From the NCBI RefSeq assembly GCF_000226095.1, contig NC_016474.1, forward strand, positions 4,030,001-4,094,000: DNA of 64,000 nt, read 5' to 3'. The notes below the pieces were generated by a model, which was given only the letters and a program-made list of their open reading frames with translations, did no database searches and had not been told where the DNA came from. Of this stretch, positions 5,611 to 64,000 are shown piece after piece. A program made the translations under genes and the position numbers. Each line of letters starts with the position of its first letter. Positions within the stretch are counted from its first letter, which is position 1. This DNA is from Thermothelomyces thermophilus ATCC 42464 (taxonomy: Eukaryota > Ascomycota > Sordariomycetes > Sordariales > Chaetomiaceae).

Positions 5611-6058
5611 TGTGACGAACCCAACTTAGACTTCTTCTAAAAGGGTCCAGACGGAGGTAGGTGAAGCGGGACAAGCAGGCAGGTCGTCTAAGGGATTCGG
5701 TAAAGCCAAAGGGTTCATAACAACACTTAGAGTTGTCTCTTACAGTAATCAGCAATACTTGGTATAAGTACTGTGATTATAATTATTACCACTAGCAAAC
5801 TCCTAGAGTCTACTATAACGAGTGACTAGCTAGCTATATATATATAATAGTCTATCCTTCTTCAATAGTTATTACTAGTACCACTTCTCCTTTCACTTCG
5901 TAATCCTACGTTATTGACGGTGACATGTTATTATCACTAGTGAAGACCTTAGTCTTGGCAGTAATAATCTTCTGATTGGTCCGTCGAGTGATTAGCTATC
6001 GGAATGTCCCGTGTCCTAGCTACAGCCTGCCAGGCCGTCTATATGCTTATCCGTGACA
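5611..6058 (-). repeat. 3' LTR of outer family-1 element
   Basis: The 448-bp LTR starts TGTGACGAAC and ends CCGTGACA. Its termini match the inner LTR, but the middle (about 5,840-6,045) is a different sequence, shared with the third element at 54,294: LTR subfamily A. Confidence 0.93.
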
Positions 6059-6185: not shown

Positions 6186-6404
6186 ATGCCGATAGAGAAA
6201 CGGAAGTCGTATTCTGCACGTTACCGTGCTTCCCTTGCTTAGAACATCGCTAAGAACGGTTTTATTGTTATGCCTTGCTCTTGGTACGCATCGTAAGGCC
6301 TTGTCTGTAAAATGATCGTATATATAAAGCGTTACGAGGCCTGTGTTTATTAAGGTCGTTCTTATGATGGCTCTGGCATCCTGCTTTCTTCCTATAAGCT
6401 TATC

Positions 6405-6459
<55 letters not shown>

Positions 6460-6865
6460 ATGATTCCTAATGTTTGTTCTAGTGGATCGTATTCTTTAGG
6501 AGCAGCATTATATCAAAGATGCTAAACGTCATGCCGAACTTGAGCTAGATAAATCCTAATGCTGTCTAGAAGAGGCCTAGCGTAAGTTATCTAAAAAGCT
6601 TACATAGCTCCGGCGTCTTCGTCAGTAGAAGGAGTTTTTAGTAGAGAAAGGTGCTAATATAGTAGCACGTGGTCTATTGACCTTAGACAAGTTAGAGGAG
6701 GTTAAGCGGCAAGAGACGCCTACTATACCCTTGTCACAGATTAATGATGCCGTCGATGCTGTTGACTAGGGCGCTATCTTTGGTTCTATCCCGGGTTTTC
6801 CTTTGGTCGATCCGGGTTCTGCCGGTAGAACTATTCTAGTTTCTCAGGGCAGTTCAAATTCTTGA
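6186..6865 (+). pseudogene. Antisense Zn2Cys6/coiled-coil ORF of outer family-1 copy (degraded)
   Basis: Read on the plus strand, opposite to pol, this is the counterpart of the ORF at 12,715. The ATG at 6,186 is followed by a cysteine-cluster region in which the six expected ligand positions read C, Y, C, Y, C, Y at the same spacing as the inner copy. The tyrosines are TAY codons, as expected from RIP of TGY. Several TAG/TAA stops break the frame. The downstream part (about 6,505-6,740, another frame) encodes an acidic/basic helical segment with an LRRLRQ-type motif, matching the inner coiled coil. The last codons keep CAG where the inner copy has TAG, so the frame runs on to TGA at 6,863-6,865, overlapping the pol stop at 6,831. 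A 47-nt T tract lies between the two parts. Confidence 0.65.
6410..6456. repeat. Poly(T) tract of 47 nt
   Basis: An uninterrupted T run sits inside the antisense gene of the outer element, at the position of the inner copy's putative intron. The third element has only a short broken T tract near 55,088-55,103, so this is a local expansion. Confidence 0.95.
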
Positions 6866-9800: not shown

Positions 9801-12159
9801 TAATTACAATGCTCCGCATTTGTCAATAGAGAGAATAGCTATCGGCGATTTAGCTCGTTCCTCCTGTCGCGATATCGATATCATTATACCGCCTCTTCTA
9901 GAGTCCGTAGTGGTCTGCCTGCTACTATCTGTCTCTTGTAGTAGATCTGTAGGATATGCCTTTCCTTAAGTATCGTCTGCTCGTGATCCTTGTATACTCC
10001 CTATCTTACTAGTCGAATACGACTCCGTTCGGGGTTGTAGGTAGCTACCATTCTTCTAGCTAATATCTAGGTTATAGTCTTTATACTATAATAACCCTAA
10101 TATTATATCTTTATCATTACCTATATCTATAATACTAAATATAACTACTATAGTCTTTCCTACTATAGTAATATTAATTAGTTTGGTCTCCTTATATACC
10201 TATTACGTTAGAAATAGCCCTTTGACTATACTATGCTTCTGCTTCATTCTCTAGGGTATCTATAGCTAATTTATAAGTGTTAGCGAAATTAGATTTATCT
10301 CTGCTCTACTATCTATTAGTACGAGCATTTCGTACTGTTTCTACTATGCTGTTATCTATAATCGCTTGTCTTGCTGCCGTCGTCTAAAGATTATAGCGAT
10401 TTCCTATATTTCTGCTAGGAGGTCTCGATATAGTAGTCTCTTACGCTAGTCCCTCCTATACTATGCTACCACTCGCCGCTATACGGGCGTTAATGGTTTC
10501 CGGGCCCCTTAAAGGGCCCTAACCTGTTTCCTAGGTTAGTGCTAACCTCTTCGATTGTTTGGCTAATAGCAGCTTCGTCAATTGTGCTTATTTCTATAAG
10601 CCATTAAGTGCTTATAGCCTTCTACCATTAGGTCTATTCTACTTTCCGTTATACGTACCATAGCTTTATCTAAAGCTCCCGAATTTGTAATTTCTTTTCT
10701 TCCGTATAATAGAGGCAATTATTGCTCTAGTACGAGTCTTATATATCTTGTCCGGTTCCGTAGTACCTAGGCTAGGCTCGTCTTAGAACTATCGTAATGC
10801 TTTCTAAATTGCAGGCTTCGATCTTCTAGAGCAATTCGGCCGCTCTATTTCCTATATCGTAGACCTATTCTACAGGGCGTAAGCTTCTGTCCTCATTTCC
10901 TTATCAGGTCGGCCAGTAATTGTTTTCGAATTTGTCGCGGAAGTAGTATTAGCATTCGTATACCACACACTAGAACTAGGGCACTTATATATATGCCTCG
11001 TGTTAAGGGTATAGTCGTGTAGCGTTACCTAGGAGGTATTAGAATTCTTTCCTAAATCCTTCCTATTATATATAGACTATAGGTACTCTAGTGCTAATAT
11101 AGGAATATTTCTTCTAGTAGCTTTCCTATATACGCTCGTCTTTTCCACGGTTCGCGTATATAAACTGGTATTCTAGGTTCTATACGTCGTTATTAAGTTA
11201 TTAGCCGTCAAGATACTTAGTATAGCTATTAGGCCTATCGTATATCATAGGCTATTCTCCTTTAATAGTTTCTACGATATATTAGAGTTCCCTTATTTTG
11301 TCCCTCATTCTATCACTCTACTAGGCAAGTCAAATCAAGCGCCCATCCCGTTCGTATAGTTCCGTATTAAGCCGAAAAACTTTATTATAGTACTATTCGA
11401 TTCGTTCCTAGAGGAATAGAACATTAGGTCTAGGTCTTTCGATTCCTTAGGTATCGGTTATCTACGATCCATCCCGCCTCTACGTAACCGTAAAACCCTA
11501 CTACCTCAAGACTAGGAGAATCGAAGCTAGCAGTACATATTCTCCTGCTATGTCCCATTCGGCAAGACTTGTCTCTAGGTCTATAGTGACCAGTTTAGAG
11601 TATGGTGCTTGTTCGTCTTTACTATTGTCATTATATCCGAGACTATCCGTATCACTGCCCCTGTCTTTGTAGCTTATAGCTACTACTTCGATAACATCCT
11701 TAGTAGTTTTGTTAATAGTTATAATTTCCCTTCTAGGGACTATCTTTTACTCTTTCTTTAGGCTATAACATTCTTACTTATAGTGCCCTTTCTTTCTGTA
11801 GTTATAGTAGGTAACATTAGACTTGTCTTTAGTTATCTTCTTCTAGTCCTACTTCTACGTTATATCTATATCTATAGCTCTAGGGTACATCCTATATAAG
11901 GTACTAATATACGCTCGCTTTTTCTTGTCGTTAGCCTTAACTATAGTTCCGTTTATTCGACCTCGTTTCTACTACTCTTATATATAGAGTCGATTATCGA
12001 TTCTAATAGCCTATATAATATATTTATCTAGGGTCTTAGGCTGATTATACTTATATAGCTTGTCCTTAACCTTTTCCTTTAAGCCATTATAGAACAATTA
12101 TATTAATGCCTTGTCGTTAAGCTAAGACTTAAGCATGTCCTATCTAAACTATATAACGT
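6831..12159 (-). pseudogene. Gag-pol of outer family-1 element, pol-side part (RIP-degraded)
   Basis: This is the minus-strand gag-pol relic of the outer copy, continuing upstream at 19,714-20,310. Domain order matches the inner copy. The pol stop is near 6,831, with the integrase C-terminal and chromodomain region about 6,850-7,200 and the integrase core about 7,350-7,850. RNase H lies about 8,600-8,720, the RT box near 9,121-9,140 (YLDN instead of YLDD), and the CCHC knuckle region about 11,770-11,815. Numerous TAG/TAA codons and Trp/Gln/Cys losses fit C-to-T and G-to-A changes. It is not translatable. Confidence 0.8.
12155..12159. repeat. Target-site duplication AACGT (left) of inner family-1 element
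   Basis: AACGT lies directly before the inner left LTR and recurs at 19,714-19,718. Joining the flanks through one copy restores the outer gag sequence, matching the uninterrupted inner gag around 18,653-18,670. Confidence 0.95.
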
Positions 12160-12587
12160 TGTGACGAACCCAACTCAGACTTCTTCTGAAAGGGTCCAGA
12201 CGGAGGTGGATTGAGCAGGACAAGCAGGCGGGTCGTCTGAGGGATTCGGTGAAGCCAAAGGGTTCACAACAACACTTAGAGTTGTCTCTCACAGTAATCA
12301 ACAATGCTCGGTATGAGTACTGTGATTGTGATTGTTACTACTGGTGAACTCCCAGAGTCCACTATAACGAGTGACTATTTACATGCATATATACTCCTAG
12401 GATCACTAGCAGTCGTGGTGATCATTCATACTGGCTCACCTGGCTCATATCGTGAGCCAGTGATCCTCTGTTGGGATCATTTCTTGCCAAGCGTGATCCT
12501 GTCCTGATTGGTCCATCATTCCTTCGGCTTGATTGGCCCGTTCGTGCCAGTGGCTCAGGCGGCATCTGTATACATATTTCCGTGACA
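12160..12587 (-). repeat. 3' LTR of inner family-1 element
   Basis: The 428-bp LTR runs from TGTGACGAAC to CCGTGACA. The same length is found at 19,286-19,713. The internal part (about 12,370-12,570) is unrelated to subfamily A, so this is LTR subfamily B. Confidence 0.95.
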
Positions 12588-12592
12588 CGATG

Positions 12593-12602
12593 CCCTCCCT
12601 CC
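12593..12602 (-). promoter_or_regulatory. Polypurine tract of inner element
   Basis: On the element strand this reads GGAGGGAGGG, five bases from the 3' LTR, the expected place for the plus-strand DNA primer of reverse transcription. Confidence 0.7.
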
Positions 12603-12714
12603 GAGGCTTTCGACCTAAAAGCCCTCTTTTAGGCCGTTTCAAATAGCGCTAACATCCTTTCCACATATACCTTGTAATTTTTTCCCTTTTCCTGTACTAC
12701 TGGTGACTGACAAG

Positions 12715-13357
12715 ATGGTAGATCGTGTTTCTAAGCGCCGATCTTCGAAATCCCAATAGTGCGCCGCGCTTGCTTCTTTTATTGATTCTTCTGGCGTGGA
12801 CGTCATGCCGTGTTCGTGGTGTTTTAAGCGGAACTTGGCTTGTCGTATGGCGTCAGGCTCTTCTTGCTGTAGCGAGTGCGTGCGTCGGGGTCGTTCTTGC
12901 GATGGTTCCGACGTAGCGTCTGCTTGTTCGTGACCTGGTTTATTGCCTTAATGTTTGTAGCTGATTCTTTATAGTAACGAAGATTATGTCCAAACAAAAG
13001 CGTGTAGAATAAGAAGAGGCCGATGCTAAAGAGGCCCTTTTTGTCCTTCAGACTCAACTTCAGACGGCTGTCGGTCGATTAGCTCGTCTTCGTCGCCAGA
13101 AACGTTTCTTGAAGGAGCGGGGTTCCGAGCTGTTTCGTCGAGGCATGCAGTCTCTAGAGGAAATAGAGGCGGAAGAACGGAGGGTGCGGGAGTCCGAAGC
13201 ACGCGTTATTAGTAATGTATGGTCCTGGGGTGCTAACGTCCCGTTTGACTGGTCTTCTTTGGGCCTGGATTTGTCGGAGGCCGACTTGGCCGTTTTGTCC
13301 GAGCCAGTGCCTACGGTCGATCCGGGTTCTGCCGGTGGAACTATTCCAGTTTCTTAG
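12715..13357 (+). CDS. Antisense-encoded Zn2Cys6 cluster plus coiled-coil protein inside chromovirus
   Basis: This plus-strand gene lies between pol and the 3' LTR, opposite to the element's own transcript. From ATG 12,715, exon 1 (to 12,925) encodes a basic N-terminus and cysteines 33, 36, 43, 52, 55 and 62. The spacing C-X2-C-X6-C-X8-C-X2-C-X6-C is exactly that of fungal Gal4-type binuclear zinc clusters. A probable 49-bp intron (12,926-12,974, GTTCGT..TAG, CTGAT branch-like) joins in frame to exon 2 (12,975-13,357). Exon 2 encodes a long Leu/Arg/Glu-rich coiled coil, then an acidic Trp/Asp-rich tail ending in GSAGG. Two in-frame stops (TAG 12,757; TAA 13,010) look like RIP of CAG and CAA. 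The stop at 13,355 is probably also RIP-made, since the outer copy has CAG there and reads on to TGA (here 13,373-13,375). About 197 residues. I infer a nuclear DNA-binding dimer; its function is unknown. Confidence 0.72.
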
Positions 13358-16300
13358 GGCAGTTCAAATTCTTGACTGGTTCCTATAAGTTGTCTTCTGG
13401 TCCAAAATCAAGCCATTTGACTAGGTACTACAGTTCCCCGTTGATGATGCGTGAATCTAGAATTTCTTCGATGTCCTATTCTTCTTCCTCGTCTTCTGCT
13501 TCGATGTACGTGGCAACCTTGGCGTTTTTCGGTGCTGGTTCAAGAAGCGAAATATAAAAAACATCCGTCCGTAGGCGCATAGATAACGGTAACGATAGTC
13601 GGTAGTTAGATGTCGAAATTCGTTCTTTGATAACGAAGGGTCCGACCTTCTTGAAGTCCAGCTTCGTGCTTGGTCGTTTAGTTCGTAAGTTTCGTACGAT
13701 TAGGTAGACTTTGTCTCCCCTCTCTAGGCAAGGTCCCTCGAGCCTGTATTTGTCGTAGTAGTTCTTCATTCTGGTTTTGACAAACCTAAGTTCCTTCTTA
13801 AGCTTCTCATACAGTGCGTGTATCTATTCTGCTTTGACTGCTGCTCTCGGCACTGTGACCTCTGGTCCTTACCTAAGGTCTGCTTTATATCCGTAGTTCG
13901 CGAAGAACGGTGTGACTTTGGTCGTTTCTGTTGGCATCGTGTTGTAGGCGAGTTGTGCTACTGGTAATAGCATGACCTAGTTGTCTTGCTAGTAGTTGAC
14001 GTAAGAACGGAGATACTACTCGATAACTTAGTTTAGTCACTCCGTTTGTCCGTCAGTCTGTAGGTAATATGCCGTTGACAGCTTGCTGTTGACGCCCAAT
14101 CGTTGCATTAACGCTTGCCAGAACTTCGATGCGAACTTGGTGTCTCTGTCGGTGATCCATTCTTGCGGCCAAGCATGCACTAATGCAACTTGCTGATAGA
14201 TCACGTCTGCCAACTGTTCCGCTGTCTAGGACTCCTTATAGGGAAAGAAGTATGCCCATTTAGTCAGGCGATCTACTATAGTAAGAATACTGTCGTAGGT
14301 CACTCCTGTGGCTGTGTCCTTAGATTCTGGTAGCTTTATAACGAAGTCTATTGTAACTAAACTCTATAGTTTGTTAGCTGTTAGTAGTGGCTAAAGTAGC
14401 CCGTACGGCTTGTGTCGTGCTGTTTTGCTCCGATTGCAGATGTCGTAGTTCCATACGACTTCCTTGACTCGTGTCGTTAACTATGGAAAGTCGTAGTGTT
14501 TCTTGACTTGTATGACAGTCTTCGTAACTCCTTTGTATCCTCCGAGTTTCGACTCGTAGAGTTCTCGAATCATCCGCAGCTATTGATCTTTGTCGTAGAT
14601 ATACGCTTTGCCTCGGTACTAGAGTTTCCTATCTTTTTCTTCTACTCCGTCAGGTACCACTGGTCCGGGTGCTACTTGATACTATGCCTCGTTGATCCTT
14701 TCCTCTCGAAAGATTGTACAGCATTCTAGGAACGAGTTAAGTAGATCATCTTCTACGGGTGTCTACGTTTCGTGATGCAGCGTTCCGTCTATTCGTTCCT
14801 TGAACAACAGTAGTGTTGTTCCCGTTCGTCCTTTCGTGTGATCCGTTCGTCGGCTTAAGATGTCCGCTTGTGCGTTCTCTTTGCCCTTCTTGTAGCGGAT
14901 CTCAAAGTTGAATTCCGCGAGGAATTCTGCCCATCGTATTTGTCGTCTATTGAGTTCCTTTGTCGTCGTAAAGTATCGTAGGTTCTTGTGATCCGTATAT
15001 ACTTGTACCGGTTTAATCGTGCCACTGAGGTATAGTCGCCATTCCTTGAAGGCTTCGACAATCGCAAGTAGTTCCTTGTCGTGAATCGGATAATTGAGAC
15101 GTGGTCCGTCGAGCTTCTTTAAAAAGAAGGCTATAGGATGTAGCTTCCCTTGTTCGTCTCGTTGTCCTAATTGTCCTCCGATGGCGTAGTCTAAAGCGTC
15201 CGTTTCTACCTCGAATGGCTTCTTAGGGTCTGACAGTACCAGTATTAGGTCTTCGGTAATGGCGTTCCGGATCTGCGTAAATGCTTGCTCGTGTTATTCT
15301 TCCCATTGGAATTTAGCATTCTTCTTGGTAAGTTCGTATAAAGGTCGTGCAATCGCTCCAAAGTTCCTGATGAACATCTAGTAGAAGTTTGCAAATCCGA
15401 TGAAGCTTCGTACTTCTGTAACTGACGTCGGTTGTAGCCAATTCTTGATAGCTTCAACCTTTGAAGGTTCCATCCGGATTTGTCCTAGGGATATCTTGTA
15501 TCCTAGAAATACCGTTTTCCTGATGTGGAATTCGCTCTTTTCCTTGTTAACTGATAGCTTGTACGTATATAGCGCGTCTAGCACTGCTTTTACGTGCTTC
15601 CGGTATTCGTCCATTGTCTTGGAGAAGATGAGTATGTCGTCGAGATAATATACCGTAAATTTGTCGAGAAAGGGTCGGATAGCTTGATCAATCAGGGCTT
15701 GGAACGTTGCCGGCGCGTTCGTAAGTCCGAATGGCATGACAAGGTACTTATAGTGGCCATAGGGTGTCCTAAAAGCCGTTTTCCACTCGTCGCCTTCTTT
15801 GATCCGTATATAGTTGTAGGCCGATGGCAAGTCAAGACGCGTAAAATATTAGGCTCCTGCCAACTGATCTCGGAGCCGTGAGATCAGCGGTAACGGGTAT
15901 CGGTTTTTCACGGTCTGTTCGTTGAGTTGCCGATAGTCGACGTATAACCGTAGCTTTCCGTCTTTCTTGGGCATAAACAGGATTGGGTAGCCTGCTGGCG
16001 ATGTCGACAGGCGGATATGTCCTCTTCGAAGGTTCTCCTCCAAATATCGCTTAAGTTCTTCGTTCTGTGTCTGGCTCGTATGGTAAATCTTGAAGAACTT
16101 CAGTCGTGCTCCTTCCTTGAGCTTGATCTCGTGATCCTATGGGCCGTGTTCTGGTAGTCCTTCTAGATATTTTGGTTCGAATGCTAAGTGTCCTTCGTAT
16201 TCCTTCGGTACTTCCCTAGTCTTGTCTTGTCTCTCGGTTTTCTAGTAGTATACGAACTTGGTTCCGTCTATGGCGATACTGGCGATTTCTCCTATCTCAA

Positions 16301-19258
16301 CCCACTACTCCTATTGTAGTGCTCCGTATTCGTCAACGGAGAGAACAGCTATCGGCGATTCAGCTCGTTCCTCCTGTCGCGATATCGATGTCGTTATGCC
16401 GCCTCTTCCAGAGTCTATAGTGGTCTGCCTGCCACTGTCTATCTCTTGCGGTGGATCCGTAGGACATGCCTTTCCTCGAGCATCGTCCTCTCGCGATCCT
16501 TGCGTGCTCCCTATCTCGCTGGTCGAATATAACTCCATTCGGGGTCGCAGGTAGCTACCATTCTTCTAGCTAATGTCTAGGTCGTAATCTTTATGCCATA
16601 GTAACCCTAATATCATGTCTTTGTCGTTACCTATATCTATAATGCTAAATACGACTACTATAGTCTTCCCTGCCACAGTGATATCGATCGGTTCGGTCTC
16701 TCTACGTACCTATTGCGTCGGAAATGGCCCTTTGACTATACCATGCTTCTGCTTCATTCTCTAGGGTATCCGTAGCTAATTTACAAGTGTCGGCGAAATC
16801 AGGTTCATCTCTGCTCCACTATCCACTAGTACGAGCATTTCGTGCCGTTTCCATTATGCTATTATCTATAGTCGCTTATCTTGCCGCCGTCGTCCAAAGA
16901 TTACGGCGATTTCCTATGTTTCTGCCGGGAGGTCTTGGTATAGTGGTCTCTTGCGCTAGTTCCTCCTATACTACGCTACCACTCGCCGCTACACAGGCGT
17001 TAATGGTTTTCGGGCCCCTCGAAGGGCCCTGACCCGTTTCCCAGGTCAGTACTAACCTCTTTAGTTATTCGGCTAATAGCGGCTTCGTCAATCGTGCTCA
17101 TTTCCGTAAGCCATTAGGTGCTTACAGCTTCCCACCATTAGGTCCGTTCTGCTTTCCGTCGTACGTGCTATAGCTTCGTCTAAAGCTCCCGAATTCGCAA
17201 TTTCTTTTCGTCCGCGTGATAGAGGCAATCGTTGCTCCAGCACGAGTCCCATATGTCTTGTCCGGTTCCGTAGTACCTAGGCCAGGCTCGTCTTGGAACT
17301 ATCGTGATGCTTTCTAGATCGCGGGCTTCGATCTTCTAGAGCAATTCGGCCGCTCTGTTTCCTGTATCGTAGACCCATTCCACAGGGTATAAGCCTCCGT
17401 CCCTGTTTTCCTGTCGGGTCGGCCAGTGATTATTTTCGAATTTGTCGCGGAAGTGATATCGGCATTCGTGTGCCACACACTGGAACTAGGGCACTTACGC
17501 ATGTGCCTCGTGTCGCGGGTATAGTCGCGTGGCGTCGCCTAGAAGGTATTAGAACTCTTTCCCGAATCCTTCCCATTGTACGTAGACTGTAGGTACTCTA
17601 GTGCTAAGATAGGAGTGTTTCTTCTAGTAACTTTCCCATATACGCTTGTCTTTCCTGCGATTCGCTTGTATAAACTAGTATTCTAGGTTCCGTACGTCGT
17701 TGCTAAGTTACTGGCCGTCAAGATACTTAATGTAGCTATCGGGCCTATCATATGTCACAGGCTATTCTCCTTTAATGGTTTCCACGATACGTCGGAGTTC
17801 CCTCATTTCGTCCTTCATCTCATTGCTCTGCTAGGCGAGTCAAGTCAAGCGCCCATCCCGTTCGCGTAGTTCCGTGTTAAGTCGGAAAACTTCGTTACGA
17901 TACTATTCGATTCGTTCCTAGAGGAATAGAGCATTGGGTCCGGGTCTTTCGATTCCTTGGGTGTCGGTTGTCTACGATCCATCCCGCCTCTACGTGATTG
18001 TAAAACCCCACTGCCTCAAGGCTAGGAGAATCGAAATTAGCGGTGCATACTCTCCTGCCGTGTCCCATTCGGCGAGACCTGTCTCTGGATCCATAGTGAC
18101 CAGTTCGGAGTACGGTGCTTCGTCTTTACCGTTGCCGTCGTGTCCGAGACTGTCCGTGTTACTGCCCTTGTCTTCGTAGCTTGTGGCCGCTACTTCGATA
18201 ACGTCCTTGGTGGTTTCGTCGATAGCCGTAATTTCCTTCCCAGGGGTTGGTTTCCATTCTTTCTTCGGGCTCCGGCATTCTCGCTTGTAGTGCCCTTTCT
18301 TTCTGCAGTTGTAGTAGGTGACATTGGACTTGTCTTTGGTTGTCTTCTTCTGATCCTGCTTCTACGCTGCGTCTACATCTATAGCTCTAGGGTGCGTCCC
18401 GTACGAGGTACTGACGTACGCTCGCTTTTTCTTGTCGTTGGCCTTAACCGTGGTTCCGTTTATTCGACCTCGTTTCTGCTACTCTTGTGTGTAGAGTCGA
18501 TCATCGATTCTAATGGCCTGTGCGATGTATTCGTCTAGGGTCTTAGGCCGGTCATACTTATATAGCTCGTCCTTAACCTTTTCCTTTAGGCCATTATAGA
18601 ACAATTATATTAGCGCCTTATCATTAAGCTAAGACTTAAGTATATCCTGTCTAAACTATATAGCGTAGGAGGCTACTAACTTGGTCTGTCGAAGATTAGC
18701 GAGTCTTTCTTACGTATAAATCTTCTTATCTTTATCGCCGAAAACCTTTCAAAGCTCTTCTTCGAAACGGTCGTAAGATCGGAAGACTACCTATATAAAC
18801 GTGTCTCGGTCATCTTCGTCTTCCTTAGTGAGATAGTCGTTCCACGTAGGCTCGAACCATCTAAGTGCCTTGCCCTCTAGTCTCGTGGCTACGTAGAGGA
18901 CTTTGGCTTTGTCGTCCGGAAACTTGTCGTTATTAAGCCGGAAGTAGGATCAGAGGTTTGTCAGGAATCCTACAAGATCCTCCTTGGTTCCTCCGTATTT
19001 ACCAGGTGGTTCGATCTTGATGCGGCTTGCCTTGGCGGTCTCGAGCGCTTCGATTTTGGCGTAAGCCTCGTTGACCAACTTCTGCGAGTACTTTTCGCGA
19101 TTCTCGAGTTCCTTAATTCGAGCTTGAGCAGCCTTGTCTCTCTGGTCTAACTCCTGGATCCGCTGCTAGAGTTGACTAAGCTGAGTGAGCAGCTGTTCGG
19201 CCGTGACGTCGGTAGCCATGTCGATGTCGAGGTCGAAGTCTCCTCCGTTCTGAACCAT
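13341..19258 (-). pseudogene. Gag-pol of inner family-1 chromovirus
   Basis: Gag starts at ATG 19,258, 28 bp from the 5' LTR, with a coiled-coil N-terminus and a retrotransposon capsid region (18,600-19,050). The CCHC knuckle is at 18,275-18,316, its first Cys changed to Tyr. The retropepsin motif DSGA is at 16,812-16,823. RT spans about 15,380-16,040 with YLDD at 15,636-15,647. RNase H (ETDALDYAIGG) is at about 15,166-15,228. The integrase core includes TDRD near 14,150, and the integrase C-terminal domain is at 13,476-13,769. A chromodomain lies at about 13,360-13,490 (DIEEILDSR, YLVKWLDFGPEDN), and the frame ends at TAG 13,341. Stops such as TAG for Trp or Gln occur throughout gag and pol, so the copy is inactive though nearly intact. 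Domain order (integrase after RT/RNase H) is Ty3/gypsy; the chromodomain places it among chromoviruses. Confidence 0.9.
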
Positions 19259-19272
19259 GACAAAACAAAGGG

Positions 19273-19283
19273 AGTGGTAACAA
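19273..19283 (-). promoter_or_regulatory. Self-priming primer-binding site
   Basis: Two bases inside the 5' LTR boundary, the element strand reads TTGTTACCACT, the exact reverse complement of AGTGGTAACAA in the LTR (19,458-19,468). It does not begin with the TGG expected of a tRNA 3'-CCA primer site. The same PBS is kept in the outer (left of 20,338) and third (left of 61,437) elements. Confidence 0.75.
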
Positions 19284-19285
19284 CG

Positions 19286-19713
19286 TGTGACGAACCTAAC
19301 TTAGACTTCTTCTGAAAGGGTCCAGACGGAGGTAGATTGAGCGGGACAAGCAGGCGGGTCGTCTGAGGGATTCGGTGAAGCCAAAGGGTTCACAACAACA
19401 CTTAGAGTTGTCTCTCACAGTAATTAACAATGCTCGGTATGAGTACTGTGATTGTGATTGTTACCACTGGTGAACTCCCAGAGTCCACCATAACGAGTGA
19501 CTATTTATATGCATATATACTCCTAGGATCACTAGCAGTCGTGGTGATCATTCATACTGGCTTACCTGGCTCATATCGTGAGCCAGTGATCCTCTGTTGG
19601 GATCATTTCTTGCCAAGCGTGATCCCGTCCTGATTAGTCCATCATTCCTTCGGCTTGATTGGCCCGTTCGTGCCAGTGGCTCAGGCGGCATCTGCATGCA
19701 TATTTCCGTGACA
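19286..19713 (-). repeat. 5' LTR of inner family-1 element
   Basis: The 428-bp LTR is directly repeated at 12,160-12,587 and contains the promoter and self-primer elements annotated separately. Confidence 0.95.
19458..19509 (-). promoter_or_regulatory. LTR promoter: TATA box and predicted 5' end acting as primer
   Basis: On the element strand TATAAATA lies at 19,509-19,502. About 41 nt further on, AGTGGTAACAA (19,468-19,458) is the natural position for the RNA 5' end. This 11-mer is exactly complementary to the PBS at 19,273-19,283, as in Tf1-like elements whose cleaved mRNA 5' end primes reverse transcription. The start site is inferred from spacing, not observed. Confidence 0.65.
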
Positions 19714-19718
19714 AACGT
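19714..19718. repeat. Target-site duplication AACGT (right) of inner element
   Basis: Matches 12,155-12,159. Confidence 0.95.
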
Positions 19719-20310
19719 AAGAGGCTACTAACTTAGTCTATCAGAGATTGGCAAGTCTTTCTTATATATAAATCTTCTTATCTTTATCGCTAAAAACCTT
19801 TCGAAGCTCTTCTTTAAAACGGTTGTAAGATCGGAAAACTGCCTATATAAACACGTCTTAGTCGTCTTTGTCTTCCTTAGTAAGATAGTCATTCCACATC
19901 AGCTCAAACCATCTAAGTGCCTTGCCCTCTAGTCTCGTAGCTATATAAAGGACTTTGGCTTTTTCGTCTAAAAACTTGTTATTATTAAGCTAGAAGTAGG
20001 ATCAGAGATTTGTCAAGAATCCTACGAGATCCTCCTTAGTTCCTCCGTATTTGCCAGGTAGTTCGATCTTAATACGCTTCACTTTAGCGCCCTTAAGTGC
20101 CTTGATTTTAGCGTAAGCCTTGTTAACTAACTTCTATAAGTACTTTTCATAGTTCTCGAGTTCCTTGATTTAAGCTTAAGTAGCCTTGTCTCTCTAGTCT
20201 AACTCCTAGATCCGCTACTAGAGTTGACCAAGCTAAGCGAGCAGTTGTTCGGCCGTGACGTCGGTAGCTATGTCGGTATCGAGGTCGAAGTCACCTCTAT
20301 TCTAAACCAT
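19719..20310 (-). pseudogene. Gag N-terminal part of outer family-1 element
   Basis: This is the 5' part of the outer gag, cut off by the nested insertion. The ATG survives at 20,308-20,310 and the coiled-coil and capsid regions parallel 18,660-19,258 of the inner copy, with many more TAG/TAA codons. The frame continues at 12,159 on the far side of the insertion. Confidence 0.8.
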
Positions 20311-20337
20311 GATAGAACAAAGGGAGTGGTAACAACG

Positions 20338-20785
20338 TGTAACGAACCTAACTTAGACTTCTTCTAAAAGGGTCTAAACGGAGGTAGGTAAAGTAGGACA
20401 AGTAGGTAGGTCGTCTAAGGGATTTGGTAAAGTTAAAGGGTTTATAATAACACTTAGAGTTGTCTCTTATAGTAATTAGCAATGCTTAGTATAAGTATTA
20501 TAATTGTAATTATTACTACTAGCAAACTCCTAGAGTCTACTATAATGAGTAACTAGCTAGTTATATATATACAATGGTCTATCCTTCTTTAATAGTTATC
20601 ACTAGTACCACTTCTCCTTTTACTTTGTAATCCTATGTTGTCAACGGTGACATGTTATTATCACTAGTGAAGACCTTAGTCTTGGCGGTGATAATCTTCT
20701 GATTGGTCTGTCGAGTGATTGGCTGTCGGAATGTCCCGTGTCCTAGCTGCAGCCTGCCAGGCTATCTATATGCTTATCCGTGACA
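20338..20785 (-). repeat. 5' LTR of outer family-1 element
   Basis: The 448-bp LTR pairs with 5,611-6,058 and ends CCGTGACA. It is followed by the CTTAT duplication. Confidence 0.93.
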
Positions 20786-20790
20786 CTTAT
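20786..20790. repeat. Target-site duplication CTTAT (right) of outer element
   Basis: Matches 5,606-5,610. Confidence 0.95.
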
Positions 20791-23700
20791 CTTCTGTTTC
20801 TATAAAATAGTACTTTATAAGGGTAGTACTCTATATTATAGTCACTATATTACTATCCCTATTGAAAATATCTTTACTATTAACCTCTAATTCGATAGTA
20901 TTAAAAGCTTATGTTGCTATCTAGTCAGACTATAACGCGTCTGTTAGTAAGCCTTTATAGTCGATAGCAAAGATAGGGTTATCTATTTAAGATGCTATCT
21001 ATTTTACCTATTAGACAAGAGTATATCTACCTTACTTATGATCTATCCAGAAATTAATCTCTCTAGCCTTAGTATAGTTATAGTTTAACTCTAGGAAAAC
21101 TCTTTTAATGTTAGTAAGACGATTAAGGGAGGTTATAACCACTTTTAGTAGATCTAAACCTTTAATATATTAAAGGAAGGCCTTATTAGTAATAAGGTTT
21201 AGATTTAAATGATATTCCTAATTATACTCCTTTCAGTAACTTCTTATAAACCGTTAGTATAGCTTCTAATTAGGAAGATCTAGCTAGAGAGAGGTATAAA
21301 TACAAATAATATACTACTAGGTCCCTTAATTAGCTATAGTAACTATATCCTTACTAAGGATCTTAACTTATTAGTTTTCTAGAAGACTAGGATCTCTCTT
21401 ACCTAAGATCTATTTAAAACCGAGCTAATAGATAAGACTATTATAGATATCCTCTACTAGGACTAGATACCTATAAGCAAAGTATATCTAGTTACTATAG
21501 TAGTAGTAATTATAAGGTATAGCCAAGGTTAAACTTAGCTAGAACCTATTATTCTTCTTCATCTACTAAGACTCTTAAGTAGCCAATAGGTAGGTTCAGA
21601 TCTCCTTAATCTCGTCGTTACTTAGGTTATCTATCTAGTCATAGGAATACCTACCTCTATCTAAGGATTTGCGGCTAACTTTGCCTTTATTGATCTAAAG
21701 CTTATATAAGGCGTCTGTAAGCCCGTTAACAATCTTATTAAAGGTAATATCTCTCCAGGTAGATGAACCTAAAGGACTCTCCTATATCTAGGGAGCCAAA
21801 GGACTTTTCTCAATAGTCTAGCTTACCTATAGTTTAACCTCTCCTCCTTTTAGATCTAGTTTATAATAGACTAACCTAGCATTAACTCCTTTATATAAAT
21901 ACTCCTATATAAAGTTATAGAAGTCTTCCTACTTTATATTATTAACCTATAAGTTACCCTTCTTATAGACCTAAAGACTAGTCCAGAGAGTAAGGAGAAA
22001 TCTATTCTATACCTTCTAGATAGCTAATAACTAGTAAATAGCTTTCTTCTTCTTTAGCACTTAGGTAAGTAGGATATTAACGTACTCTAGGTAGTTATAG
22101 ATAGACTTAGCCGAATCTATATACTAGGAATCTAGAAAACGCTCTAGCTCTTAAGTAGAGGTTTCCTAACGAGAGTCGTTTTACTTCTAGCGTTCCTTAA
22201 TAGTAGCTTCGAAAGTAGCCTAGTCCTTTTTCTTTAACTCTAGCTACTAGTCAAGGATTTCCTAAAGGTTATCTATATATTACTATTTGAAATAGGAGAT
22301 CTTGTCGTTATTATCCTTACTAAAGATCTTATAAGCTTTTTCGAAACGCTCGAGGTATTTAGTAGTATTATAACTAGAGAAGAGACTAGGTAATCTCTTA
22401 TCTATTAATAAAGAGAATATAACCTAAATAACTTTAGTAAGTTTATCTATTATAATATCTACTTAAGTATAACGCTTGACTTCTAAGTCTAAAGTAAGGT
22501 TTCTAAACTCTAGTAATTAAGGTAATTCTAATAGCATCTTTCCTAATAAGGTTTCGGTATACCTGGATATAAGAGGTATTAAGAGTAGTGATTCTAATTA
22601 AGGTATTTACTAAATCGATAAGAAGAGTAGTACCTAAGGTTATTATCCTTAATTATATCTTTCTATTTAGGTAACTTCCTTAAAGATAACTCTTCTATCT
22701 AAGTAGTTAATCCAGGAAGCCTTCCTTTTCTCCTTTAAGTCTTCCTATAACTAGTAGAATTAAATATAAACTTGGTCTACTGCTTTTACTCCTTTAAAGT
22801 ATACCTAGTAAAGCTATTCCTAAACCTTCTAATAAGGGATACCCTATAATAATAGTACTCTAACCCCTAAAATCAGAACTCCTAGAATAATAAGACATAT
22901 CTATACTAGACTATTAAAGAGTAATAATATATAGGTAGATATACCCTTACTAATAAGCGCTAATACTAAGGTAACCAGGGCTAGGATAGCTATAAAGCTC
23001 TCCTCTAGTATCTACGTAACTCTAAAATCTCATTTCTAAATCCTAAATAGTTCTAATATTACTAATCCGTATTTCAGAGTTTCTATCCCTCTAAATAGAT
23101 ATTAAACTCCTTTAAACTTATTATCCTACGATTCCTACCGTCTCTACTAGCAGTATTATTACATTAGGGTAAGAGTAGTTCCCTAGCCTACTACTAGATA
23201 TACCGATCTCTTAGTACCTATATTTACTCTTCTTACTTTCTTAATAGTCTTACTATATACGCCTCTATATATATATCTTCGTTCCTCTATTACAAATATT
23301 ACTATCCTACTACACTCGAAGTCTAATAGTCTAATTTAGACTTAGAGCTAAGCTCTTCCCTAATTAAGCCCCTAAAAATATAAGCTAATACTAACTCTCT
23401 AAGGCACTACTTAGCACCTCTAGAACTAAACCTCTGTCTAGTCAGATAGGGAGGAGCTTCGGCTTAAGATGTCTAGGGCATCCAAGTATTCGCGGTTATA
23501 GTAGGCAAGTCCGACTATCTAGACGGAAACGACAATAAGGGCAAAGACGGCGATAGTAATGTCCCTCAAGATAGACGTAGAAGAGTCTACTTACGTAGAG
23601 AAAGATATCTCTAACTTACAAAAGAAAGAAGAACTATATCCTATTACTTAGATCTATTAGAGCAAACGAGTGTCGAAAGCCATCTATTATTCTTGTCTAT

Positions 23701-54864: not shown

Positions 54865-55510
54865 GATGCTAGTAGAGAAACGGAAGTCGTATTCCATACG
54901 TTACCGTGCTTCCCTTGCTTAGAACATTGCTAAGAATGGTTTTATCGTTATGCCTTGCTCTTGGTGCGTATTATAAGGTCTTGTCTGTAAAATGATTGCG
55001 TATATAAAGCATTATAAGGCCTATATTCGTCAAGGTCATTCTTGCAATGGCTTGGGCATCCTGCTTTCTTCCTATAAGCTTATCTCCTTTTTTCTTTTTT
55101 TTTGAGTGTAATTCCTAATGTTTGTTCTAGTAGATTACATTCTCTAGGAGTAGCATCGTATTAAGGATGCTAAACGTTATACCGAGCTTAAGCTAGATAA
55201 ATCCTAATACCGTCTAGAAGAAGCTTAGCACGAGTTATCCGAAAAGCTTACGCGGCTCCGGCGTCTTCGTTAGTAGAAGGAGTTTTTAGTAGAGAAAGGT
55301 GCCGATATGGTAGTGCGTGGTCTATCGACCTTAGACAAGTTAAAGGCAGTTGAGCGGCAAGAGCGACAAGAGGCGCCTACTATACCCTCGTCAGAGATTA
55401 ATGATGCTACCGATGCTATTAACTAAGGCGTTGTCTTTGGTTCTGTCCTAGGTTTTCCTTTAGTTGATCCGGGTTCTACTGGTAGAACTATTCTAGTTTT
55501 CTTAGGGTAG
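54865..55510 (+). pseudogene. Antisense Zn2Cys6/coiled-coil ORF of third family-1 copy (degraded)
   Basis: Counterpart of 12,715-13,357. The ATG at 54,865 opens a frame whose six ligand positions read C, C, C, Y, Y, C at the same C-X2-C-X6-C-X8-C-X2-C-X6-C spacing; the first Cys codon is at 54,956-54,958. TAG/TAA stops and a frame change near the end disable it. The coiled-coil part (about 55,160-55,370) matches the outer copy more closely than the inner. Confidence 0.6.
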
Positions 55511-61436: not shown

Positions 61437-61882
61437 TATAACAAACCTAACTTAGACTTCTTCTAAAAGGGTTTAGACGGAGGTAGGTGAAGCGGGACAA
61501 GTGTACGGGTCGTCTAAGGGATTCGGTAAAGCCAAAGGGTTTATAATAACACTAGAGTTGTCTCTTATAGTAATTAGCGATGCTTAGTATAAGTACTGTA
61601 ATTGTAATTGTTACCATTGGTAAACTCTTAGAGTCTACCTAATGAGTGACTGGCTAGCTATTTATATACAATTGTCTGTCCCTCTTTAATAATTATCACT
61701 AGTACTATTTCTCCTTTTACTCTGTAATTCCGTATTGTTGATGGTGACATGTTATTATCACTAGTGAAGACCTTAGTCCTGGCGGTGATAATCTTCTGAT
61801 TGGTCCGTCAAGTGATTGGCTGTCGGAATGTCTTGCGTCCTGGCTGTAGCCTGCCAGGCCGTCTATATGCTTATCCGTGACA
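61437..61882 (-). repeat. 5' LTR of third family-1 element
   Basis: 446 bp, ends CCGTGACA; the 5' TGTGAC is mutated to TATAAC. Confidence 0.92.
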
Positions 61883-64000
61883 GAGTGCTATTATTATAGG
61901 GTATCCCTTATTAGAAGGTTTAGGAATAGCTTTACTAGGTATACTCTAAAGGAGTAAAAATGGTAGACTAAGTTTATATTTAATCTTATTAGTTATAAGA
62001 AGACTTAAAGGAAGGGAGGAAGGCTTCCTAGATTAGCTACTTAAATAGAAGAGTTATCCTTAAGGAAGTTACTTAAATAGAAAGGCGTAATTAAGGATAG
62101 TAACCTTAGGTACTACTCTTCTTATTAGTTTAGTAAATACCTTAATTAGAATTACTACTCTTAATACCTCTTACGTCTAGGTATACTAAAACCTTATTAG
62201 GAAGGATACTATTAGAATTGCCTTAATTACTAGAGTTTAGAAACCTTACTTTAGACTCGGAAGTTAAGTGTTATATTTAAGCGGACATTATAGTAGACAA
62301 GCTTACTAAAGTTATTTAGGTTATATTCTCTTTGCTAACAGATAAGGGATTACCTAGTCTCTTCTCTAGTTATAATGCTACTAAATATCTTAAGTGTTTT
62401 AAAAAAGCTTATAAGATCTTTAGTAGAGATAATAGTAATAAGATCTCCTACTTTAAGTAATAGTATATAGATAACCTTTAGGAAATCCTAGACTAGTAGC
62501 TAAAGTTAAAGAAAAAGGACTAGGCTACTTTCGAAGCTGCTGTCAAGGAACGTTAGAAGTGGAATGACTCTTACTAGGAAACCTCTACTCGAGAGCTAGA
62601 GCGTCTTCTAGATTCCTAGTATACGGATTCGGCCAAGTCTATCTATAACTACCTAGAGCATGTTAATATCCTGCTTACCTAAGTGCTAAAGAAGAAGAAA
62701 GTGGTCTATTAGTTATTAGCTATCTAGAAGGTGTAAGACAAGTTTCCCTTTACTCTCTAGACTAGTCTTCGGGTCTATAAGAAAGGTAACTTATAGGTCG
62801 ATAATATAGAGTAGGAGGACTTCTATAACTTTATATAGGAGTATCTATATAAGGGAGTTAATACTAGGTTAGTATATTATAAATTAGATCCGAAAGGAAG
62901 AGAAGTTAAACTATAGGTAAGCTAGACTAACGAGAAAAGTCCTTTAGCTCCCTAGATATAAGAAAGTCCTTTAGGTTTATCTGCTTAGAGAGATATTACC
63001 TTTGATAAGATCGTTAACAGGCTTATAAATGCCTTATATAAGCTTCGGATTAACAAGGGCAAAGTTAGCTATAAATCTTTAGATAGAGGTAGGCGTTCCT
63101 ATAACCAGATAAATGACCTAAGTAACAATAAGATTAAGGAAATCCGAACCCACCTATTAGCTACTTAGGAGTCTTAGTAAAAGAAGAAAAGCGGTAGGTT
63201 CTGGCTAAGTTCGACCTTAGCTATACCTTATAGCTATTACTACTATAGTGACCAGACGTACTTTACCTATAGGTACCTAGTCCTAGCAGAGGATATCTAT
63301 AATAGTCTTGTCCATCGGCTTAGTTTTAAGTAGATCTTAGGTAAGAGAGATCCTACTCTTCTAGAAAGCTAGTAAGTTAAAATCCTTAGTAAGGATATAG
63401 CTACTATAGCTAATTAAGGGACCTAGTAACATATTATTTACGCTTATACCTCTCTTTAGCTAGATCTTCCTAGCTAGGAGCCGTACTAACAGTTTATAGA
63501 GAGCTACCAAAAGGAATATAGTTAGGAATACTATCTAGATCTAAACCTTATTACTAATAAGGCCTTCCTTTGGTATAGCAAAGGTTTATATCTATTAGAA
63601 GTGGTTATAACTTCCCTTAATCGCCTTACTAATACTAAGAGAGTTTCTCTAGAGTTAATCTATAACTATACTAAGGCCAAGAAGATTAATTTCTAGATAG
63701 ATCGTAAGTAAGGTAGATATACTCTTGTCTAATAGGTGAAACGGACAGTGTCTTGGACGGATAACCCCGTTTTTGCCACCGATTACAAAGGCTTACCGAC
63801 GGACGTGTCATAGTCTAACTAGACGGCGATATAAGCTTTTAATGCTATCAAGTCAGAGGTTAATAGTAAAGATATTTCTAATAGGGATAGCGATATAGTA
63901 ATTATAGTATGAAGTATTACCCTTATAAAGCACTATTTTATAGAAATAGAGGATAAGCTAATATAGAATCCTATTAGATAAGAGGGAACCGATAAAGTAA
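61883..64000 (+). mobile_element. Family-2 element, right copy, gag-like part
   Basis: The inverted counterpart of 20,791-22,860 and, after 63,957, of 5,568-5,610. The plus strand has helical gag-like stretches (for example 62,520-62,720, KERxKWNDSY and RELERLLDS) with many stops. It runs out of the window before pol. A short unmutated stretch lies at about 63,736-63,830. The first five bases are the right GAGTG duplication. Confidence 0.7.
63953..63957. other. Empty site corresponding to outer family-1 insertion
   Basis: ATAAG (complement CTTAT) is present once here within sequence matching 5,568-5,610 joined directly to 20,791 onward, showing the pre-insertion state. Confidence 0.88.

What the first reader, a model, noticed from the sequence alone, without database searches (positions are those of the whole stretch)
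12715..13375. Chromovirus carries an oppositely oriented Zn2Cys6 cluster/coiled-coil gene
Between pol and the 3' LTR, on the strand opposite to the element's genes, a frame encodes C-X2-C-X6-C-X8-C-X2-C-X6-C, the exact fungal Gal4-type zinc-cluster spacing. A probable 49-bp intron and a long coiled coil follow. That is the DNA-binding plus dimerisation layout of fungal transcription factors. The same six positions recur at the same spacing in the other two copies (6,186 and 54,865), altered only by TGY-to-TAY changes of the RIP type. Retroelements with a separate antisense DNA-binding protein are not something I know to be functionally described. It could control LTR or host promoters, target integration, or oppose silencing. 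I have seen similar cysteine-rich hypothetical proteins in fungal genomes, but cannot check them here.
Basis: partly seen in the sequence, partly recalled or inferred. Interest (0 to 1): 0.88.

Follow-up and report, generated by a model that had tools for sequence, protein, structure and literature searches.

The report
Swappable antisense regulator-like gene in retrotransposons
A fungal jumping gene carries, on its opposite strand, a spliced gene for a zinc-cluster-like, coiled-coil protein; copies with nearly the same replication genes carry strikingly different versions of it together with the neighbouring promoter, which hints at a replaceable self-regulation module.

Summary
The window copy is dead (RIP-type changes; three in-frame stops). 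In 18 recent copies, selected for lack of stops, the second version of the gene is intact and encodes one identical 196-aa protein. Relatives occur in several orders of Sordariomycetes: 86 of 149 retrieved proteins keep exact C-X2-C-X6-C-X8-C-X2-C-X6-C, and a heptad coiled coil follows. Codon-position tests support coding constraint.

The unexpected part: the window's element and the element at 54-62 kb have almost the same R-U5-gag-pol (20 transversions in 6.1 kb), but the block [U3 - antisense gene] is heavily diverged (antisense protein 43% identical). A third version sits on the same pol end, a fourth on a pol about 92% identical. So antisense gene plus U3 behaves as an exchangeable module.

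Best reading: an accessory DNA-binding-type regulator of the element's own LTR, working like HTLV-1 HBZ; binding and regulation are inferred, not shown. Antisense genes in LTR elements are already known (plants; Botrytis brtn): a new variant of a known kind. Pfam's Zn_clus cut-off was not reached.

The parts
12715..12925 (+). antisense gene, exon 1 (module I); broken in this copy
12811..12900 (+). six-cysteine stretch C-X2-C-X6-C-X8-C-X2-C-X6-C
   Evidence: each Cys at least 90% conserved in 53 aligned relatives
12926..12974 (+). intron, 49 bp, phase 1, same site in modules I, II and III
   Evidence: relatives P0001 and P0004 cross the junction
12975..13375 (+). antisense gene, exon 2, stop TGA 13373-13375; in intact module II copies the last 125 bp overlap the 3' end of pol tail to tail
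12977..13220 (+). coiled-coil region (heptad period 3.5), limits approximate
   Evidence: on relatives
12588..12660 (-). polypurine tract and a conserved island with an inverted repeat, kept in modules I, II and III
12155..12587 (-). 3' LTR (TGTCACG... start at 12587); R-U5 about 12155-12377 shared, U3 12378-12587 module-specific
19282..19713 (-). 5' LTR; U3 part (above about 19500) module-specific
13314..19490 (-). gag-pol backbone shared with the module II element at 54-62 kb (20 transversions in 6098 aligned columns, windows 13400-19499)
   Evidence: RNase H, integrase zinc and Chromo domains from Pfam on an intact copy
6186..6862 (+). antisense gene, module II, decayed copy (exon 2 hit at 6482-6862)
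54866..55507 (+). antisense gene, module II, decayed copy (exon 2 hit at 55130-55507)

Best explanation
The feature is an accessory gene of a fungal chromodomain LTR element. [quoted passage not shown] It most likely makes a spliced mRNA; its intron would survive retrotransposition because on the sense genomic RNA it is not an intron. SHOWN by sequence: an intact two-exon frame in recent copies, a six-cysteine N-terminal motif, a heptad coiled coil, coding constraint, and relatives in several orders of Sordariomycetes. SHOWN by sequence: gene and U3 form one block that differs between elements with otherwise near-identical R-U5-gag-pol; one reverse-transcriptase template switch near the end of pol explains it (U3 is then copied to both LTRs). 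INFERRED: the protein is a dimeric, zinc-stabilised nuclear DNA-binding protein that acts on its own element's U3, most likely to set the level of sense (gag-pol) transcription, as HBZ does for HTLV-1. Estimated likelihoods: real expressed gene 0.95; module exchange 0.9; nuclear DNA-binding regulator 0.6; acts on its own U3 0.45; repressor rather than activator about 0.6 given that.
For: Intact in 18 of 18 selected copies, one protein, equal to P0009; unspliced reading meets an early stop in 18 of 18, intron length varies 66-80 bp while exon 1 is identical and exon 2 differs by at most 1 base. Relatives: 13, 104 and 73 rows in three searches, 149 distinct; exact spacing in 86 of 149, a looser six-Cys pattern in 100 of 149; each Cys at least 90% conserved in 53 chosen longer members. 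Heptad power at 3.5 residues reached by 0 of 300 shuffles, 75 sequences. The Cys profile's weak PDB matches are Zn2Cys6 factors in 14 of 17 rows (about six proteins; which rows are of that kind is recalled), best of them LEU3 E 0.034. Purine/pyrimidine differences at codon positions 1/2/3 without the last 43 codons: II-III 43/27/68 of 153, I-III 40/20/45 of 146, I-II 43/35/53 of 145. Gene-frame similarity above other frames (168 vs 78; 127 vs 73). Exchange: 40 module I vs 18 module II copies show 0 fixed differences in about 1225 columns of pol and 178 in 12378-13313; 1 transversion in 1075 pol sites vs 53/205 exon 1, 85/299 exon 2, 60/206 U3; the 5' LTR U3 differs too. The tree puts module I with Parathielavia/Canariomyces proteins and module II with Chaetomium.
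Against: Pfam Zn_clus stays below its cut-off of 21 bits wherever bits were shown (best 13.3); the intact module II protein P0009 and five others of the ten have no Zn_clus row at E<=10, and the module IV protein and P0017 none at E<=1. The best PDB row for the Cys profile is an unrelated cysteine-rich eggshell protein, E 0.0094. CGG triplets, the usual Gal4-type half-site (recalled), are not enriched in either U3. The link of gene and U3 does not prove co-adaptation: a single crossover upstream of the gene must carry U3 along. Transversion divergence is about as high in the exons as in U3, so constraint is modest and the protein evolves fast; the position test for I-II alone is weak (p=0.015). 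Seven of 40 module I copies are one base longer within the gene stretch.
Confidence: 0.55

Rival explanations
1. The protein is an accessory factor for the particle or the integration complex (nuclear import, nucleic-acid chaperone or target choice), not a transcription regulator; the zinc motif and coiled coil bind RNA, cDNA or chromatin.
For: Vicient and Casacuberta propose retroviral-accessory-like roles for plant antisense ORFs and cite a nuclear protein. Net basic N-terminus (15 K+R vs 6 D+E in the first 75 residues of P0001).
Against: It is encoded on the opposite strand, uncoupled from the gag-pol message. It lies next to U3 and differs together with U3 while gag and pol stay the same, which is odd for a partner of Gag or integrase.
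Confidence: 0.25
2. The antisense RNA, not the protein, is what matters (double-stranded RNA silencing or transcript interference); the frame is a by-product.
For: Discussed for plant elements. Gene and pol overlap tail to tail by 125 bp.
Against: Cysteines conserved across genera, codon-position bias, frame-specific similarity, splice site kept, one identical protein in 18 of 18 selected copies.
Confidence: 0.07
3. The protein conservation is only a shadow of pol read on the other strand.
For: The C-terminal tail GGTxPVSQGSSNS lies opposite pol's end, in the shared backbone.
Against: In 18 of 18 intact copies pol stops 125 bp inside the gene, so exon 1 and most of exon 2 lie outside pol; the conserved Cys and coiled coil are in that part, and the position test holds without the last 43 codons.
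Confidence: 0.02
4. Modules I and II did not swap; one gene-U3 block evolved at extreme speed on one backbone.
For: U3 and accessory genes can evolve fast (general knowledge).
Against: Boundaries are sharp at about 13313 and 12378; intron and third positions are also far diverged; the window's protein is nearer to P0001 (79%) and to Parathielavia and Canariomyces proteins than to module II of the same genome.
Confidence: 0.04
5. It is a recently captured host transcription-factor gene without a role in the element.
For: Zinc-cluster plus coiled-coil layout resembles host factors.
Against: Four versions sit at the same place beside related pol genes in one genome; four annotated relatives of other genera run into the complement of a chromodomain.
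Confidence: 0.05

Closest known systems
brtn, antisense gene of Boty-like elements, Botrytis cinerea (Zhao et al. 2011, Virology 417:248; paper not held; seen in passages of PMC8365987 and PMC4227169 and described in PMC7264820)
   Different: sequence not available here, so homology is untested; no Botrytis or Sclerotinia among the relatives that bear an organism name (most of the 149 bear none); no zinc motif, intron or exchange is mentioned for brtn in the passages that I saw
Plant antisense extra ORFs (Grande gene23, RIRE2, Retand, PvRetro13; review PMC7264820, parts 1 and 2 of 3 read)
   Same: position and orientation; nuclear protein and own promoter for Grande
   Different: the review reports no clear similarity to known proteins apart from an SMC and a transposase-28 domain; functions unknown; no zinc cluster mentioned
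HTLV-1 HBZ (PMC3185765, abstract and passages)
   Same: antisense, spliced, about 206 aa, leucine-zipper dimeriser, inhibits Tax-driven activation of the provirus's own LTR
   Different: HBZ is a bZIP whose transcript starts in the 3' LTR; no zinc motif or homology known to me
Gal4-type Zn2Cys6 transcription factors (PF00172; LEU3, LAC9, GAL4, HAP1 in the PDB)
   Same: six-Cys spacing within the family range (range recalled), followed by a coiled coil
   Different: below the Pfam cut-off; no CGG enrichment in U3; no fungal transcription-factor domain above cut-off in the tables
Ty1 copy number control by p22, with gag exchange between subfamilies (PMC7055915, abstract and outline)
   Same: a self-encoded control region exchanged between element subfamilies by recombination
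   Different: p22 is a piece of Gag acting on particles; here a separate antisense gene together with U3

Membership tests
Ty3-type chromodomain LTR element (chromovirus) | LTRs, RNase H, integrase and a chromodomain at the end of pol | tested here: met
   LTR pair 12155-12587 / 19282-19713; RT_RNaseH, Integrase_H2C2, Tf2-1-like SH3 and Chromo (49.5 bits, cut-off 25.1) above cut-off on an intact copy; rve 31.3 bits, just under its 32.6
Antisense extra ORF between pol and 3' LTR (review class) | opposite strand, between pol and 3' LTR, present in many copies of the family | tested here: met
   40 scored copies of version I; 18 of 18 selected intact copies of version II
Zn2Cys6 (PF00172) | six cysteines in C-X2-C-X6-C-X5..12-C-X2-C-X6..8-C (range recalled) | tested here: met
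   exact 2-6-8-2-6 in the window and in 86 of 149 relatives; module IV has 2-7-9-2-7, slightly outside
Zn2Cys6 (PF00172) | score above Pfam's curated cut-off (21 bits) | tested here: not met
   best 13.3 bits where bits were shown, none at all for P0009; 41 of 53 members match at E<=10, best E 0.001 (bits not shown)
Zn2Cys6 (PF00172) | binds two zinc ions and DNA | not testable with these tools
   needs a purified protein; structure prediction switched off
HBZ-like antisense retroviral regulator (functional analogy) | spliced antisense mRNA that codes a dimerising nuclear factor | tested here: inconclusive
   intron and coiled coil met; transcription and location not testable
HBZ | bZIP domain | tested here: not met
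   no bZIP family in the Pfam tables
BRTN of Boty | sequence homology | not tested
   BRTN sequence not at hand; paper not held

The most novel reading that the evidence does not exclude
A eukaryotic counterpart of phage immunity modules (phage comparison recalled): the antisense gene encodes a self-specific repressor that recognises sites in its own U3, so resident copies shut down newcomers with the same module, and elements escape by template-switching to another gene-plus-U3 module while they keep gag-pol. In this genome three modules sit on the same pol end and a fourth on a related pol. Module I has at least two stops in each of the 40 copies scored, while module II has 18 intact copies and module IV shows 7 listed gene hits without stops and 12 pol frames of 1287 open codons.
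Probability: 0.25. Interest if true: 0.93.

Novelty: new variant of a known kind. Interest (0 to 1): 0.76.

Why it matters
Antisense extra genes of LTR elements are known from plants and one fungus, with function undetermined according to the review that I read. Here such a gene has a protein family with recognisable parts, wide fungal distribution, intact recent copies, and a natural experiment: different gene-plus-U3 blocks on near-identical gag-pol. That turns the open question 'what do antisense genes of LTR elements do' into a direct test, whether each protein recognises its own U3 and not the others. If so, retrotransposons evolve replaceable self-control modules. It would also put a name on a number of 'hypothetical' or 'Zn(2)-C6 domain' proteins in fungal annotations that probably belong to mobile elements.

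Tried and rejected
Selection inside module I: no power; of 591 gene sites (exons, pol overlap included) 3 show any transversion among 40 copies, the rest of the variation is transitions. In the same alignment 82 of 1094 pol sites show a transversion; 71 of the 126 cells come from one copy, L083, and most cells lie at 14200-14400, probably a break in that copy; not pursued. Between-module comparison was used instead. In one search I left out only the last 26 codons, too few for the 125-bp pol overlap; one search repeats it with 43 and gives the numbers used here. A group first called 'sub3' (L009, L010, L012) turned out to be module I with heavier decay. Pfam and NCBIfam hits to coiled-coil families (HAUS1, HOOK, SMC) are below cut-off and were taken as coiled-coil noise. 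U3 motifs: the window's U3 has 8 inverted pairs against 1.0 in shuffles (0 of 500 reach it), but in the 25 of 39 other module I copies whose LTR start my pattern found the count is 1-8, median 4, and the three longest palindromes are intact in 3, 8 and 8 of 25; U3 II has 1 inverted pair (218 of 500 shuffles reach it) but 8 repeated 7-mers against 2.1 (4 of 500). Suggestive only; several patterns were tried without correction. The promoter/terminator scan uses a bacterial consensus and says nothing here. A regular-expression count of spliced versus unspliced relatives was confounded by early matches in 16 of 86 rows, so no count is claimed. Papers: 0 hits for 'antisense ORF'+'LTR retrotransposon'+'fungi' and for 'gypsy'+'opposite orientation'+'additional ORF'+'fungal'+'LTR'; 5 for 'retrotransposon'+'antisense'+'zinc cluster'+'fungal', 1 with 'Zn2Cys6', 6 for Myceliophthora and 10 of 249 listed, all seen as listings only. 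The survey 'LTR Retrotransposons in Fungi' (PMC3248453) holds neither 'zinc' nor 'antisense' in its main text. So I found no report of this gene family within these searches and this open-licence library.
Full report
What was checked. The frame given at 12715-13375 on the + strand was read directly. The cysteines are spaced 2-6-8-2-6. The copy carries three in-frame stops. The host element runs on the minus strand with LTRs at 12155-12587 and 19282-19713; an intact relative's pol shows RNase H, integrase zinc domain, Tf2-1-like SH3 and a chromodomain above Pfam cut-offs, and the integrase core just below its own.

The genome. The window's assembly has 38.7 Mb in 7 contigs. Contigs C2, C4, C6 and C7 have the lengths of the contigs that hold four Thermothelomyces thermophilus ATCC 42464 proteins in the protein database, so this is almost surely that strain.

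Copies. DNA of exon 2 finds 40 copies at 90-100% identity, the window included (40 scored of 382 candidates). I fetched the other 39. In these 40 the ATG is kept in 29, a GT donor in 21 and the acceptor TAG in 32; each copy has 2-14 in-frame stops; no codon of 198 is a stop in all copies, and 368 of 368 stop cells differ from a sense codon of another copy by C>T/G>A only, the RIP type. A relative protein (P0009) gives 217 matching pieces (150 of 985 candidates scored; exons match apart, so pieces are not copies); 18 listed exon-2 rows have no stop. All 18 have the full spliced frame and the same 196-aa protein, equal to P0009, pol open for 746 codons to the edge of the fetched stretch (18 frames of 1264 codons), and a 125-bp tail-to-tail overlap of gene and pol. 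They differ by at most 8 bases in 2065 bp of pol, hence 'recent'. They were selected for the absence of stops, so they show that intact copies exist, not how common they are; two more fetched copies (L043, L044) are decayed.

Splicing. The intron of the 18 copies varies from 66 to 80 bp by a T-run, 9 of 18 lengths are not multiples of three, and unspliced reading meets an early stop in 18 of 18. Site and phase are the same in modules I, II and III. Two relatives on contigs of 901 and 1436 bases (P0001, P0004) read straight across the junction, as spliced transcripts would; that these contigs are transcripts is a guess.

Protein family. Three searches gave 13, 104 and 73 rows (the last two scored only the 8000 candidates or so that share most words), 149 distinct proteins. 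Named rows include Canariomyces, Parathielavia, Chaetomium globosum, Corynascus, Staphylotrichum, Verticillium, Fusarium, Metarhizium, Cordyceps, Colletotrichum, Trichoderma, Sarocladium, Apiospora, Xylariaceae, Thyridium and Neoarthrinium; five looked up fall in five orders of Sordariomycetes. UniRef calls several 'Zn(2)-C6 fungal-type domain'. Exact spacing is in 86 of 149, a looser six-Cys pattern in 100 of 149; a number of the rest are short pieces. In 53 longer members that I picked from the 105 then in hand, each Cys is at least 90% conserved at 33-74% identity to the first. Hydrophobic residues repeat every 3.5 residues (0 of 300 shuffles; 75 sequences with exact spacing). Zn_clus matches 41 of 53 members at E<=10, best 0.001, but stays below its cut-off wherever bits were shown (best 13.3 against 21), and P0009 itself has no Zn_clus row. 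A profile of the 36-residue Cys stretch (15 members) matches the PDB weakly: 14 of 17 rows, from about six proteins, are Zn2Cys6 factors as I know them, the best LEU3 at E 0.034, several aligning to half a cluster only; the top row is an unrelated eggshell protein at 0.0094. So it looks and may work like a zinc cluster plus coiled coil, but I do not file it in PF00172.

In other genera the gene also sits beside a chromodomain: the annotated C-terminal tails of P0021 (Staphylotrichum), P0022 (Chaetomium; weak, E 8e-4), P0023 and P0085 (Corynascus) match the complement of the chromodomain region (4 of 149 proteins).

The exchange. Element A (12155-19713) and element B (about 54.3-61.9 kb) were aligned and differences split into transitions (RIP type) and transversions. 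Windows 13400-19499 hold 20 transversions in 6098 columns; windows 12400-13299 hold 10-32 per 100, and the U3 of the 5' LTR beyond 19500 about 20-30. The third element (6186) was compared only over its 3' part: R-U5 3/223 and pol 1/1075 against the window, exons 54/205 and 85/299. With 40 module I and 18 module II copies, fixed purine/pyrimidine differences number 178 in 12378-13313, 0 in about 1225 columns of pol beyond, 1 in the 190 columns of windows 12150-12349, and 0 in 48 columns at 12600-12649. A module II copy against the window: pol 1/1075, exon 1 53/205, exon 2 85/299, U3 60/206, PPT stretch 0/61. Protein identity is 79 of 185 over the whole gene. A single template switch near the end of pol explains it: everything 3' of it on the genomic RNA (gene, PPT, U3) changes, and reverse transcription copies U3 to both ends. 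The tree agrees: module I groups with P0001, Parathielavia and one Canariomyces protein (96/89), module II with Chaetomium inside a 27-row lineage (95/96); 78 rows, the bootstrap had not settled.

More modules. P0023 finds a third version (77% in exon 1 at C6:26676) next to a pol end 94% identical, and at C4:323588 next to one 92% identical (both pol pieces with a stop). The C4 sequence (L085) has 0 transversions in 167 columns of overlap plus pol against II, 0 in 71 at the PPT island, but 61/211 and 76/320 in the exons. A fourth version (L084) reads as one open frame without an intron, spacing 2-7-9-2-7, beside pol frames of 1287 open codons that are about 92% identical over 195 residues. A possible fifth (C2:3051745, 30% to P0116, pol 89%) was seen only in tables.

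Constraint. Purine/pyrimidine differences by codon position 1/2/3, last 43 codons (pol overlap) left out: I-II 43/35/53 of 145 (pos3>pos2 p=0.015), I-III 40/20/45 of 146 (p=0.0003), II-III 43/27/68 of 153 (p=3e-7). Similarity is strongest in the gene's own frame. It is a fast but constrained coding gene.

U3. The window's and module II's U3 both hold two CCAATCA words and a TATATA box (18 of 18 in II; in 25 other module I copies CCAATCA is in 21 and TATATA in 25), but different repeated words. Module II has CTGGTGATAA twice and TTATCACC once in 18 of 18. CGG is not enriched. These are leads for binding sites, not evidence of binding.

How it most likely works. From the anatomy, the protein should be a dimer with a basic Cys-rich head; the closest functional picture is HBZ, which is antisense, spliced, 206 aa in its main form and inhibits activation of its provirus's LTR (PMC3185765, abstract and passages). 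Regulation of the element's own U3 is my inference. Exchange of a self-control region between LTR subfamilies has a precedent in Ty1 gag and p22 (PMC7055915, abstract), and recombination between LTR elements is documented (PMC5668417, listing only; insect rover elements PMC12992720, passages).

Novelty. [quoted passage not shown]). I found no report of this zinc-cluster-like family or of its exchange with U3 in my searches. Hence a new variant of a known kind.

Noticed in passing
12588-12660: An island of about 72 bp between the LTR edge and the antisense ATG is kept among modules I, II and III (0-2 transversions in 71-72 columns) although the stretch between it and pol differs; it holds the polypurine tract and an inverted repeat (GGCTTTCGACCTAAAAGCC). 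A possible RNA element or crossover aid.
   Followed up: partly
L084 (C6:2159150-2160300) and C2:3051745: Further antisense-gene versions (IV, open in 7 listed hits and without an intron; perhaps V) beside closely related pol genes.
   Followed up: partly
G000 C2, C4, C6, C7: Annotated T. thermophilus proteins MYCTH_71551, 69995, 105130 and 79143 (P0084, P0086, P0089, P0098) look like decayed pieces of this retroelement gene, not host genes.
   Followed up: partly
20786-22861 and 61882-63957: A 2076-bp inverted repeat, 86% complementary, plus 22857-23840/53309-54292; repeats flank the gene-rich middle of the window.
   Followed up: no
12155-20840: The module I element may sit within the 5' end of a module II element (LTR-like stretches at 5611, 12160, 19286 and 20338), a nested insertion.
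   Followed up: no
17990-18361: The minus-strand frame reads like a Gag zinc knuckle whose first Cys is Tyr (YYNCRKKGHYKREC).
   Followed up: no
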